From contig JAEPQE010000004.1 of assembly GCA_017640665.1 (NCBI GenBank), positions 124,001 to 188,000 of the forward strand: a stretch of 64,000 bases of DNA. The letters run 5' to 3'. The notes beneath the pieces are model-generated. The model saw nothing but the letters and a program-made list of their open reading frames with translations. It had not been told where the DNA came from and searched no databases. This document shows, one piece after another, positions 11,537-17,582 of the stretch (positions are counted from its first letter, which is position 1; each line of letters begins with the position of its first letter). The position numbers and the translations under genes are program-made. This stretch comes from Balneolaceae bacterium (lineage in GTDB: Bacteria; Bacteroidota; Rhodothermia; Balneolales; Balneolaceae).

Positions 11537-12283
11537 ATGTTAAAAAGATTTATTCGCGCTATCAAATCGATGTTCGGTGGAGTTATCAGCTCCATGGAGA
11601 ACCCAAAATTAATTTTAGAGCAGAATATTCGGGAACTGAACGATCAGATTCCTCAAATGAATGAGAATATCGCGACTGTAAAAGCAAATCTCATCATGCT
11701 TCAGAAAGAAGTAAAGCGTAATGAAAAACAGATTGTAGATCTTACTTCAAAAATAAAATCTGCTATCAAAGCGAACAGAGATGATATTGCAGAGGGGTAT
11801 GCTCTCCAGTTAGAAAAAGCGAAAGAGACGATTATTCATTCAAAAGATCAGCTTCAGTTTGCGGAGCGTGCGTATGAAAAAGCACTTAAAGTAAAAAAAG
11901 TGTTCATGCGTGAAAAAGACCGCAAAATCCAGGAAGCCAAAGAAGCTTTACGAGCCAGCGAGCGCGCAGAATGGCAATCAAAGATTGCGGATACTTTAGA
12001 GCAATTTGAAGTGGGTGGAATTGATCAGACTCATGACGAAATGATTTCTCGTATCAACGAAGAGTCAGCTAAAAACGAAGCACGTATGGAAATCGCACTC
12101 GATAGCATCGATACTCAAACAATGGAAATCGAAGCAAATGCTGAAAAAATCAGAGCACACGAGCTGGTAGAACAGTTTAAGCTTGAGATGGGAGAGTCAT
12201 CCGGTTCTATCTCTATTGATGAAGAGCCTGAGAAGGAAGAAGCTGCTCCTTCAAAATCTGTTGGCAATAAAGAAAAAAGCTAA
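11537..12283 (+). CDS. pspA: PspA/IM30 (Vipp1) family membrane-stress protein
   Basis: PspA proteins are the bacterial members of the ESCRT-III fold family; they assemble on stressed membranes and limit leakage. The N-terminal amphipathic helix (MLKRFIRAIKSMFGGVISSM) is followed by ENPKLILEQNIRELNDQIPQM, a long coiled-coil hairpin through about residue 140, and the C-terminal helices with NEARMEIALDSIDTQTMEIE and ELVEQFKLEMG near residues 190-230. An acidic, lysine- and serine-rich tail ends the 248-residue protein. It is the first gene of a close-packed set: a shortened PspA paralogue follows after 12 bases, then a membrane coiled-coil protein. A two-domain AAA+ ATPase lies further on. No pspF, pspB or pspC is present. 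Confidence 0.92.
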   Translation: MLKRFIRAIKSMFGGVISSMENPKLILEQNIRELNDQIPQMNENIATVKANLIMLQKEVKRNEKQIVDLTSKIKSAIKANRDDIAEGYALQLEKAKETIIHSKDQLQFAERAYEKALKVKKVFMREKDRKIQEAKEALRASERAEWQSKIADTLEQFEVGGIDQTHDEMISRINEESAKNEARMEIALDSIDTQTMEIEANAEKIRAHELVEQFKLEMGESSGSISIDEEPEKEEAAPSKSVGNKEKS

Positions 12284-12295
12284 CAGGCTACCATC

Positions 12296-12760
12296 ATGAG
12301 TACCCGAAGCGAACAGGAACGCGAACGTCTGAAAGAAGAATACAAGGATCACTACCGACGTATTAAAGAGGCGAAAGAGCGTTTAAAGCAAACCGAACAA
12401 AAAGGGAAGATTGCACAGGCATTGAATAATATGAATGCCGACGAGCTCCTGGGATCGGTGGATGAATTTTTGGGTAAAGTAAAAGATAAAGTTACCAACG
12501 TAGAAGCCCGGCTTGATGTGGCAATGGATAGTCTGGATGAAGATGATCCATCATCTGCTGCAGGAAAAATAAAGCAGGAAGAGCTGGATGCCGAAATAAA
12601 AAAGCAAAAAGCCAAACAAACTCTGCAACAAGTAAAAGCTGAAATGGGTATGCTGTATTCGGAAATTGAAAAACACGCCGAAGAAATTCATGCAGAAAAA
12701 ACGATAGGAACCAAAAAGGAAGACGCTTCCAATAACGAAGACACTTCAGAAAAAAGTTAA
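12296..12760 (+). CDS. Shortened PspA paralogue (C-terminal helices only)
   Basis: The 154-residue coiled-coil protein aligns by eye with the last 90 residues of the PspA encoded just upstream: GKIAQAL with SKIADTL, VEARLDVAMDSLD with NEARMEIALDSID, and LQQVKAEMG with VEQFKLEMG. It begins with a short charged helix (SEQERERLKEEYKDHYRRIKEA) in place of the membrane-inserting helix and long hairpin, and ends in an acidic, serine-rich tail like that of PspA. It is soluble. The frame is open from ATG to stop with normal codon use, so it is a maintained short version rather than a broken gene. Co-assembly with or capping of PspA is an inference. Its stop overlaps the next start by one base (TAATG). 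Confidence 0.8.
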   Translation: MSTRSEQERERLKEEYKDHYRRIKEAKERLKQTEQKGKIAQALNNMNADELLGSVDEFLGKVKDKVTNVEARLDVAMDSLDEDDPSSAAGKIKQEELDAEIKKQKAKQTLQQVKAEMGMLYSEIEKHAEEIHAEKTIGTKKEDASNNEDTSEKS

Positions 12761-13650
12761 TGTCTACAGACGAGTTAAATATAAATTATACGAGGGAAGC
12801 GTTCCTTAATCCTATCAATTTGGGAGTCTTGCTTGCCTCAACATTAGGCGCCTTATTTTTTAGCAATTTGAGTGTTGATATCTCAAATATTCTTCTTTCT
12901 ACCGTTTTTGGAGTGGAGTTGATGTATTTAGGGGTGGTTCCAAAACTACCTCGTTTCCGAAAGAGAGTAGAACTGAAAAAAATAAAAGAGCGTCACGCCT
13001 CTAGCAATGAAAAAGATTTGTTTCAATCCCTTGACTCAGCAAGTCAGAAGCGTTTTTTAGTGCTTAAGCACCTGGCACAATTAGTGCAGGAAAATTTTGA
13101 GAAACTGCCATATAGCTCTCAGGGGTTATTAGATAACATCGGTAAGAAAATTGATGAATTGCTCGGTAACTACCTAACATTGCTTGATCTGATTAAACGC
13201 TACGAAATATACCTGAATACCTCTTTAGAGACGAATCTGAAGGAAGAGGTTGTTCGCCAGATTGAAGAAATAAAAAGTATCGAATCTGAGAAATTGAAGC
13301 GTACCAAATCCAGACGTGTGGCAATTATGCAAAAGCGTTTGCAGAAGTTTAAGATTGCTAAAGAAAAGTATCTGGTGTGTGAAACTCATCTTGAGACCAT
13401 CGAAGATGCTGTTCGCTATATTTACGAGCAGTCGATGACGATGAGCAACCCTGAAGAAATTGGTTTCCAGTTGGATAACCTGCTTACCGAGGTGGATGAA
13501 ACCTCACAACTTATCGATGATCTGGATCAGGACATTCTTCCTGAATACACTACGGAATGGGAAACAGAACTCGATTTCGATTCTATTTTGGATGAACTAT
13601 CTGATGACGTAACTTCAGAAGTAAAACCAAAGAAAAGAGTCCAGGAATAA
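12760..13650 (+). CDS. PspA-operon membrane protein with long coiled-coil cytoplasmic part
   Basis: This 296-residue product is not in a family I can name. After about 16 polar residues it has two hydrophobic segments, near residues 20-36 (GVLLASTLGALFF) and 42-60 (ISNILLSTVFGVELMYLGVV). A proline/arginine stretch PKLPRFRKRVELKKIKERH follows, and then a highly charged helical region to residue 290 with likely coiled coils around 165-230. The end is acidic. The position, overlapping the shortened PspA gene and 2 bases before a crotonase gene, suggests a membrane anchor for PspA proteins, comparable in role but not in sequence to PspB/PspC. Confidence 0.65.
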   Translation: MSTDELNINYTREAFLNPINLGVLLASTLGALFFSNLSVDISNILLSTVFGVELMYLGVVPKLPRFRKRVELKKIKERHASSNEKDLFQSLDSASQKRFLVLKHLAQLVQENFEKLPYSSQGLLDNIGKKIDELLGNYLTLLDLIKRYEIYLNTSLETNLKEEVVRQIEEIKSIESEKLKRTKSRRVAIMQKRLQKFKIAKEKYLVCETHLETIEDAVRYIYEQSMTMSNPEEIGFQLDNLLTEVDETSQLIDDLDQDILPEYTTEWETELDFDSILDELSDDVTSEVKPKKRVQE

Positions 13651-15869: not shown

Positions 15870-17582
15870 ATGTTTGACAACTATCCAACCTGGTCACAGG
15901 AATTTGCAAGAAAATATCTAAGCCGAACGATAAATACGTTTTTGCTGCATGGCAATGTGCATGATTTGGTGCCTCTCAAAAATGATGATGGAACAGATTT
16001 TCATCGTCTGAAAAGCTTTCTCTCAGATGAGTTTTTTGGAGCCCGCGACTACGTAATTTTCTATGATCGTGCTTCCGGGATCTATTTCAGAGACAAAGAA
16101 TCACAGGCGGATTTTAATCAAGCAGTTGCCGGACGTGATAGCTTAGTAGGTACCGATTACGCCAAAAAGATGCCTAAAGATCCGGTTCGGGTCTTTTCAC
16201 TGTTGGAACAATATTTCCGCCTTCGTTTGGATCAAAAGAAAAGCGTAGCGCTAATTATCGATTATGCTGAGACTATCATTCCAATGAGTGATACCGGTTC
16301 TACAGGAAATGAAGACCGTACTTCCTTGGTATATCTTTCCAGATGGGCTCATGATCCCATGTTTCTGGCTTCTGATTTTACAACGGTATTAATTACCGAG
16401 AATTTAGCTGATCTGAACAAAACGCTGGTCCAGAATCCATATACCACGGACATCAAAATTACGATTCCCGGAGAAAAAGATCGTCTTGAATTTATCAAGT
16501 TCGAAACCAGAAACGATGATTTTAAAAAGATTTCAGCAGTTAAGCCGGAAATCATTGCTCAGCAGACCGCTGGTTTGAATTATGTGAACGTGAGAAGTGT
16601 GCTTTCAAACTCTCGTGAAAATAAAGAGAAAATCACTTTTGAAGGTTTATCTGAAAACAAGAAAGAGTTGATCGAGGCCGAAGCGTATGGATTGCTAGAA
16701 TTTGTTGAGACTCCATATTCACTGGATAACGTAGCAGGACATACTCATGTGAAATCTCATCTTAGAAAAGCGGTAAAAGCACTAAAGGAAGGCAGGCAGG
16801 ATGTAATGCCGATGGGATATTTAGTTTGTGGTCCGGTTGGGACTGGAAAAACGTTCCTGGTTACTTGTTTTGCGACCGAAGTGGGAGTACCAATGGTGAA
16901 ACTCAAGAACTTCCGAAGCCAATGGCAGGGCGTTACTGAAGGAAACCTAGAAAAGATTTTGTCCATTCTAAAGGCGATGTCGCCGGTAGCTGTTATGATT
17001 GATGAGGCCGATGCTTATCTCGGAGATCGAAGCTCAAGTGGTGATAGTGGAGTGTCGAGCAGAGTATTTTCTCAGATTGCTACCTTTATGAGCGATACCA
17101 GCAACCGCGGACGCATTGTCTGGTTCTTAATGACGGCACGACCTGACTTAATGCCTATTGATTTAAAACGACAAGGTAGAGCCGAAGAACATTTAGCACT
17201 ATTCCCGCCTCACACCAACGAAGAGCGTGTCGAGTTGTTTAATGCCATGAAGAAGAAAACCGGTCTTCAGATGACAGAAACTTATATTCCGGCAATCATA
17301 GAAGAGGGTTTCAAAACCTTCTCGGGTGCAGATATGGAAGCCGCTCTTACCCGGGCTAAATTCCGGGCTGCTGCCGATGGAAGAAAGAAAGTCACTCCTG
17401 AAATTCTGGATGAAGCCCTCGCCGATTTCATTCCCCCAACGTATCCGGAAGAGGTAGAACTTCAAACATTAAACGCAGTAATTGAGTGCACTTCGAAAGC
17501 CTTACTTCCAGAACGCTACCGCGAAATGGATCGGAATGAAATCCTGATTAAGATCGAAGAATTGAAATTTAGGGTTGGTTGA
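15870..17582 (+). CDS. Two-domain AAA+ ATPase with degenerate first domain
   Basis: The 570-residue soluble protein has an N-terminal AAA-like domain (about 1-240) without a Walker A; FLLHGNVHDLV at 24-33 stands where it would be, while ALIIDYAE at 127-134 resembles a Walker B. The second AAA+ domain (about 280-530) is intact: Walker A GPVGTGKT at 321-328, Walker B VAVMIDEAD at 373-381, sensor-1 MTARPD at 421-426, and the arginine-finger region DLKRQGRAEEHL with R434 and R437. A helical lid holds SGADMEAALTRAKFRAA. The spacing of ARPD...R..R is that of the classic clade containing Vps4, FtsH and p97. Together with the pspA cluster upstream it suggests an ATPase that remodels PspA assemblies; this is an inference. 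Confidence 0.85.
   Translation: MFDNYPTWSQEFARKYLSRTINTFLLHGNVHDLVPLKNDDGTDFHRLKSFLSDEFFGARDYVIFYDRASGIYFRDKESQADFNQAVAGRDSLVGTDYAKKMPKDPVRVFSLLEQYFRLRLDQKKSVALIIDYAETIIPMSDTGSTGNEDRTSLVYLSRWAHDPMFLASDFTTVLITENLADLNKTLVQNPYTTDIKITIPGEKDRLEFIKFETRNDDFKKISAVKPEIIAQQTAGLNYVNVRSVLSNSRENKEKITFEGLSENKKELIEAEAYGLLEFVETPYSLDNVAGHTHVKSHLRKAVKALKEGRQDVMPMGYLVCGPVGTGKTFLVTCFATEVGVPMVKLKNFRSQWQGVTEGNLEKILSILKAMSPVAVMIDEADAYLGDRSSSGDSGVSSRVFSQIATFMSDTSNRGRIVWFLMTARPDLMPIDLKRQGRAEEHLALFPPHTNEERVELFNAMKKKTGLQMTETYIPAIIEEGFKTFSGADMEAALTRAKFRAAADGRKKVTPEILDEALADFIPPTYPEEVELQTLNAVIECTSKALLPERYREMDRNEILIKIEELKFRVG

What the first reader, a model, noticed from the sequence alone, without database searches (positions are those of the whole stretch)
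12296..12760. Shortened PspA paralogue lacking the membrane helix and long hairpin
The 154-residue product aligns by eye with the C-terminal helices of the adjacent PspA (EARLDVAMDSLD vs EARMEIALDSID; QQVKAEMG vs EQFKLEMG) but has a short charged helix in place of the lipid-binding N-terminus. In ESCRT-III polymers short or altered subunits can cap or regulate growth, so a built-in modifier of PspA is plausible. The frame is intact and overlaps the next gene.
Basis: partly seen in the sequence, partly recalled or inferred. Interest (0 to 1): 0.6.

Follow-up and report, generated by a model that had tools for sequence, protein, structure and literature searches.

The report
Short PspA helper with ATPase tag
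Beside the gene for a membrane-shaping protein (PspA, a bacterial relative of the ESCRT-III proteins that cut membranes in our own cells) lies a conserved half-size relative, and both end in the same short tag, which was lost in the two lineages that also lost one particular ATP-driven unfolding enzyme; this suggests, but does not prove, that some bacteria have their own version of the ESCRT polymer-plus-ATPase machine.

Summary
The 154-aa product (SHORT) is homologous to the C-terminal half of PspA: BLASTP E=1e-9; profile-profile E=5e-21, score 148 against at most 27 for shuffled columns. It lacks PspA's membrane helix and long hairpin, is under purifying selection, and sits directly behind pspA throughout Balneolales and most of class Rhodothermia. 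Whether it caps PspA polymers is untested.

The evidence points to an ATPase partner. PspA and SHORT share a C-terminal motif, K-[TS]-[ILVM]-G. Of 640 genes in 63 named loci, 116 carry it and 114 of these are PspA or SHORT. The motif tracks a single-copy AAA+ ATPase (window 15870-17582), not SHORT alone. All 113 genomes with the ATPase carry it on PspA, SHORT or both. In the two lineages that lost the ATPase (16 genomes), PspA's motif and SHORT went on the same branches. Where SHORT alone was lost (three times), PspA kept the motif.

I infer that SHORT is an accessory ESCRT-III-like subunit that helps to present AAA-engaging tails on PspA assemblies. No binding or remodelling was tested. The AAA-PspA association and a PspA-like coiled-coil neighbour were noted before (PMC11237479); the homology mapping, shared tail and co-loss appear new.

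The parts
11537..12283 (+). pspA (248 aa), ESCRT-III superfamily polymer subunit
   Evidence: PF04012 E=2.5e-15, 57.1 bits, over its cut-off; profile matches solved Vipp1 weakly (E=0.0044)
12254..12265 (+). tail motif KSVG (residues 240-243 of PspA)
   Evidence: sequence; K[TS][ILVM]G in the last 40 aa of 102/129 PspA against 1.1 expected from shuffled tails
12296..12760 (+). SHORT: 154-aa paralogue of the C-terminal half of PspA
   Evidence: AlphaFold2 helices 3-45, 48-82, 88-133 and a low-confidence tail 134-154
12329..12358 (+). SHORT-specific conserved N-terminal helix (residues 12-21, LKEEYKDHYR)
   Evidence: K13 99%, K17 97%, H19 94%, R21 91% of 108 class-wide sequences
12698..12709 (+). 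tail motif KTIG (residues 135-138 of SHORT)
   Evidence: sequence; found in 102/107 SHORT tails against 0.65 expected
12760..13650 (+). third gene: 296 aa, about two N-terminal membrane helices plus a long helical domain; conserved partner, no tail motif
   Evidence: present in 50/58 relatives; homologue beside AAA outside the class; motif 0/125
15870..17582 (+). AAA+ ATPase, 570 aa: N-terminal half without a recognised nucleotide-binding motif plus an active-looking C-terminal AAA (Walker A GPVGTGKT, Walker B VAVMIDEAD, pore-loop-like QWQG)
   Evidence: PF00004 E=1.4e-24; nearest solved proteins Cdc48/VAT family; alignment with these residues conserved

Best explanation
SHORT is an accessory ESCRT-III-type subunit. 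It keeps PspA's polymer-contacting C-terminal helices (end of alpha3, alpha4, alpha5), has dropped the membrane-binding alpha0 and the alpha1-alpha2/3 hairpin, and ends in a flexible tail with the motif K-[TS]-[ILVM]-G that PspA also carries. The proposed mechanism has four steps. (1) PspA polymerises on the inner membrane. [quoted passage not shown] lacking a hairpin of its own it cannot extend the lattice in the normal way. (3) The KTIG tails of PspA and SHORT are engaged by the class-specific AAA+ ATPase encoded a few genes downstream. (4) The ATPase pulls on or extracts subunits, remodelling or disassembling the polymer, as Vps4 does with tail-bearing ESCRT-III subunits. Shown here: homology, conservation, operon, the shared motif, its specificity, and its co-loss with the ATPase. 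Inferred: docking, physical tail-ATPase contact, and remodelling.
For: Homology to PspA 129-219. Conserved order TP-pspA-SHORT-third-crotonase-CorC-AAA across Balneolales. Motif shared by PspA and SHORT and far above chance. Motif specificity: 114 of 116 tail hits among 640 genes are PspA or SHORT, and only these two of 60 genes in the window. Motif tracks the ATPase: 113/113 genomes with the AAA have it on PspA and/or SHORT; 16/16 confident AAA-lacking genomes lack it. On a tree built without the PspA tails, AAA loss and total motif loss fall on the same two branches. SHORT lost alone, 3 events: PspA keeps the motif. PspA motif lost with AAA kept, 3 events: SHORT keeps it. The third gene stays in 15 of the 16 AAA-lacking genomes, so the motif follows the AAA and not the third protein. 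One genome of another class has third-like, AAA and 236-aa genes in a row and a PspA ending KKEIGPQTEGQ. Interface logic: alpha5 binds the neighbour's hairpin tip (PMC8281802).
Against: No binding, polymer or ATPase data exist. Only two independent AAA losses were found, one of them in a single genome. Four genomes with the motif show no AAA hit (G009, G093, G142, G158; 71, 64, 92 and 89% complete, fragmented), so a real exception is not excluded. The ATPase is encoded away from pspA in the other Rhodothermia families sampled (contexts). Three lineages have PspA and the AAA without SHORT, so SHORT is not essential for the link. No MIT domain was found in the ATPase by Pfam. The AlphaFold2 model of SHORT has low pTM (0.28) and no Foldseek match. 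The absence of double motif loss in AAA-bearing genomes is not itself significant: about 1.4 of 113 expected under independence (my arithmetic).
Confidence: 0.5

Rival explanations
1. SHORT is a capping or growth-limiting subunit: its alpha5 occupies the hairpin tip of the terminal PspA, and because it lacks a hairpin it stops elongation or sets polymer size; the tail has another role.
For: Domain content and the alpha5-hairpin interface of Vipp1/CHMP1B (PMC8281802).
Against: Does not explain why SHORT carries the same tail motif as PspA, nor why it vanished together with the ATPase in both AAA-loss lineages. It is compatible with, not exclusive of, the best explanation.
Confidence: 0.2
2. The KTIG tail is a recognition signal for something other than this ATPase (a protease, chaperone or membrane partner) that happens to be lost in the same lineages.
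For: Motif-ATPase correlation rests on two loss events; tail motifs are often proteolytic or adaptor signals (general knowledge). Most of the AAA-less f3 clade has a different conserved PspA tail (...TVHVN..NHV), which suggests another tail reader there.
Against: Motif is nearly restricted to PspA and SHORT among 640 neighbouring genes, which argues against a general degron; motif and AAA change on identical branches; the AAA is in the same conserved gene block in Balneolales.
Confidence: 0.2
3. SHORT is a decoy or substrate-delivery adaptor that recruits the ATPase to PspA's membrane-anchored partner (the third protein) rather than to PspA polymers.
For: Third gene is next to SHORT in Balneolales and next to the AAA in the outside genome G454.
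Against: Third is kept in 15 genomes that lost SHORT, AAA and motif; SHORT shows sequence homology to PspA, not to third.
Confidence: 0.08
4. SHORT is a degenerate PspA duplicate without a function of its own.
For: None beyond its shortened length and faster evolution than PspA.
Against: Purifying selection, retention across a class, own near-invariant N-terminal helix and tail motif.
Confidence: 0.02

Closest known systems
PspA/Vipp1 (IM30), PF04012, ESCRT-III superfamily
   Same: SHORT aligns with the end of alpha3, alpha4 and alpha5, including the PspA-invariant EAR residues (181-183) in alpha4
   Different: No alpha0, no alpha1-alpha2/3 hairpin, own conserved N-terminal helix, below detection by PF04012
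ESCRT-III tails with MIT-interacting motifs and the AAA+ ATPase Vps4/CdvC
   Same: ESCRT-III-superfamily polymer protein plus an accessory paralogue with a short motif in a flexible C-terminal tail, and a AAA+ ATPase whose presence tracks the motif
   Different: Motif K-[TS]-[ILVM]-G rather than a MIM helix; no MIT domain detected; ATPase closest to Cdc48/VAT among solved structures; physical link untested
PspA-AAA+ and PspA/Snf7 neighbourhoods of Ravi et al. 2024 (PMC11237479)
   Same: They report PspA with a AAA+ protein whose N-terminal AAA copy is inactive, and in Bacteroidetes (CBH24266.1; [quoted passage not shown]
   Different: The passages read do not define the coiled-coil gene as a PspA C-terminal paralogue, nor report the shared tail motif, its correlation with the ATPase, or the co-loss; their supplement could not be read here
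Accessory ESCRT-III subunits of eukaryotes (Vps2/CHMP2, Did2/CHMP1, IST1)
   Same: Paralogues of the main polymer subunit that bring tail motifs for Vps4 (analogy, general knowledge)
   Different: Those keep the full helical hairpin core; SHORT does not

Membership tests
PspA/IM30 (PF04012) | Full-protein match to PF04012 above its gathering score | tested here: not met
   SHORT has no PF04012 match listed even at E<=10
PspA/IM30 (PF04012) | N-terminal amphipathic helix alpha0 and alpha1-alpha2/3 hairpin | tested here: not met
   Alignment starts at PspA residue 129; the model shows helices 3-45, 48-82, 88-133 only
PspA/IM30 (PF04012) | Homologous alpha4-alpha5 region | tested here: met
   Profile-profile E=4.8e-21, above all controls
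PspA/IM30 (PF04012) | Polymerisation into rods or rings | not testable with these tools
   needs electron microscopy or sedimentation
ESCRT-III/Vps4-type system | ESCRT-III-superfamily polymer protein | tested here: met
   PspA of the window: PF04012, weak profile match to Vipp1
ESCRT-III/Vps4-type system | Co-inherited AAA+ ATPase with intact Walker A/B and pore loop | tested here: met
ESCRT-III/Vps4-type system | MIT domain in the ATPase | tested here: inconclusive
   No MIT match by Pfam; the N-terminal half was not folded
ESCRT-III/Vps4-type system | Tail motif on ESCRT-III subunits that binds the ATPase | tested here: inconclusive
   Motif and co-inheritance shown; binding not testable here
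ESCRT-III/Vps4-type system | ATP-dependent remodelling or disassembly of the polymer | not testable with these tools
   needs reconstitution

The most novel reading that the evidence does not exclude
Rhodothermia bacteria have a complete ESCRT-III/Vps4-like machine: PspA as polymer, SHORT as accessory adaptor subunit, and a dedicated AAA+ remodeller that reads a K-[TS]-[ILVM]-G tail code on both. This would be the dedicated ATPase for bacterial ESCRT-III that the field lists as an open question.
Probability: 0.45. Interest if true: 0.87.

Novelty: new variant of a known kind. Interest (0 to 1): 0.68.

Why it matters
Structural papers on PspA and Vipp1 state that it is unknown whether bacterial ESCRT-III polymers have an equivalent of Vps4 or work as composite co-polymers (PMC8281802; PMC11746142), and a 2024 survey confines systems with both vps4 and ESCRT-III to archaea and eukaryotes (PMC10936438). 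The tail motif, the accessory subunit and the co-loss pattern give a specific, cheap test of that question: mutate four residues and measure ATPase binding and PspA disassembly. If true, tail-coded ATPase remodelling of ESCRT-III either predates the archaea-bacteria split or evolved twice.

Tried and rejected
Pfam and NCBIfam scans of SHORT gave only chance-level matches. A profile of SHORT against PDB sequences gave nothing meaningful. AlphaFold2 of SHORT had a low pTM and no Foldseek match, so the second look had no chains to compare. The third protein as a second ESCRT-III (Snf7-like) subunit: no sequence similarity to PspA (hhalign probability 8-16%). Its model gives only generic helical-bundle, BAR-domain and occasional Vipp1/CdvB2 rows, with a best Foldseek E of 0.1 and Z values under the tool's caution level for helical bundles, so this is inconclusive. 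The idea that the motif simply follows SHORT was rejected: three SHORT-less, AAA-bearing lineages keep it on PspA. The idea that it follows the third gene was rejected: third persists without the motif in 15 genomes. Relatives of the ATPase in the class of G454: none besides G454 in 98 genomes.

Full report
OBSERVATION. The ORF at 12296-12760 is intact, encodes 154 aa, lies 12 bp behind pspA (11537-12283) and overlaps the next gene by one base. Its residues 21-118 align with PspA residues 129-219 at 30% identity, E=1e-9. Searched against 58 whole genomes, the sequence finds only SHORT and PspA. Profile-profile comparison gives E=1.3e-14 within the order and 4.8e-21 class-wide; the score of 148 compares with at most 27.1 for 30 window-shuffled controls and 15.2 for the reversed profile. 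Substitutions are mostly synonymous.

ANATOMY. AlphaFold2 (29-sequence alignment) gives three helices, 3-45, 48-82 and 88-133, and a low-confidence tail 134-154; pTM is low (0.28), so only the secondary structure is used. By alignment the helices correspond to the end of alpha3, alpha4 and alpha5 of PspA; alpha0 and the alpha1-alpha2/3 hairpin are missing. Conserved positions in 108 class-wide sequences are K13, K17, H19 and R21 in the N-terminal helix (SHORT-specific), E70-A71-R72 in alpha4 (shared with the PspA-invariant EAR), and A106 in alpha5. In the order-level alignment the tail residues K135 and T136 are also invariant or nearly so.

CONTEXT. In Balneolales the order TP - pspA - SHORT - third (membrane-anchored helical protein) - crotonase - CorC/CBS - AAA+ is conserved. 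SHORT occurs through class Rhodothermia and not elsewhere in a 394-genome phylum sample at E<=1e-6. The AAA+ is found in 209 of 244 class genomes and, in the phylum sample, in one genome outside the class, G454. There the gene order is third-like - AAA - 236-aa protein, with a near-copy of the 236-aa gene directly before PspA on another contig; that PspA ends in KKEIGPQTEGQ (third homology E=2.8e-11). Outside Balneolales the AAA gene lies away from pspA in the 20 genomes looked at.

THE TAIL MOTIF. Reading the tails side by side showed K-[TS]-[ILVM]-G near the C-terminus of both PspA (KSVG, nt 12254-12265) and SHORT (KTIG, nt 12698-12709). Class-wide it is in the last 40 residues of 102/129 PspA (1.1 expected from shuffled tails) and 102/107 SHORT (0.65 expected), never in their bodies, and in 0/125 third proteins. 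In 63 named loci, 116 of 640 genes have it in the last 40 residues, and 114 of these are PspA or SHORT; in the window only these two of 60 genes have it.

CO-INHERITANCE WITH THE ATPASE. All 113 genomes in the table with a detected AAA carry the motif on PspA and/or SHORT. All 16 genomes confidently lacking the AAA (15 in family f3, plus G006) lack the motif and SHORT. Four genomes with the motif show no AAA; all are fragmented assemblies, 64-92% complete. A tree of PspA without its tail plus the third protein places AAA loss on two branches; total motif loss needs exactly the same two. Two kinds of natural experiment separate the parts. SHORT was lost alone three times (f21, f6, f3-g38), and in all three PspA keeps the motif and the AAA is present. 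PspA lost the strict motif three times with the AAA kept (the f17/f14/f7 group, f20, and two f8 genomes where it reads RT[IM]G and the AAA is detected in one), and SHORT keeps it; most f17 SHORT proteins carry two copies. The absence of double losses in AAA-bearing genomes is suggestive but not significant alone (about 1.4 expected under independence).

MECHANISM. [quoted passage not shown] SHORT keeps that helix but not the hairpin, so it could dock on PspA without extending the lattice in the usual way. It brings extra KTIG tails, and a AAA+ with intact Walker motifs and a conserved pore-loop-like QWQG is the best candidate reader. I therefore favour an adaptor or accessory role in ATPase engagement (0.5), with capping (0.2) and another tail reader (0.2) as rivals. 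Shown: homology, conservation, motif, specificity and co-loss. Inferred: docking, binding and remodelling.

NOVELTY. Ravi et al. 2024 (PMC11237479) had already linked PspA to a AAA+ with an inactive N-terminal copy and mentioned, in Bacteroidetes, a coiled-coil gene reminiscent of PspA next to PspA and Snf7; their supplement was not readable here. The identification of SHORT as a PspA C-terminal paralogue, the shared tail motif, and its co-loss with the ATPase were not found in the papers searched. The survey PMC10936438 confines systems with both vps4 and ESCRT-III to archaea and eukaryotes. I file this as a new variant of a known kind, since a physical ATPase-PspA link is unproven.

Noticed in passing
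15870-17582: A single-copy AAA+ ATPase is nearly universal in class Rhodothermia (209/244 genomes) and nearly absent from the rest of the phylum sample; its N-terminal half matched no family but has a Walker-B-like IIDYAE and resembles a degenerate AAA domain.
   Followed up: partly
L032, L035, L040, L043, L046, L048, L049, L050, L207-L210 (PspA C-termini): Most f3 genomes without the ATPase have a different PspA tail, often ending in TVHVN..NHV, which may mark another tail-binding partner.
   Followed up: no
12760-13650: The third protein (about two membrane helices plus a long helical domain) is conserved and co-encoded with PspA, also beside the AAA in a genome of another class, but shows no detectable sequence similarity to PspA; its fold relation to ESCRT-III is unresolved.
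   Followed up: partly
L263:1252-4912 and L262:1429-2608: In a genome of another class of the phylum, a third-like gene, the AAA+ and a 236-aa protein lie in a row, and a near-copy of the 236-aa gene precedes PspA on a second contig.
   Followed up: partly
genomes G016, G017, G022, G031, G033, G053: Several genomes, some small (1.5-2.4 Mb), appear to have lost PspA, SHORT, third and the ATPase together.
   Followed up: partly
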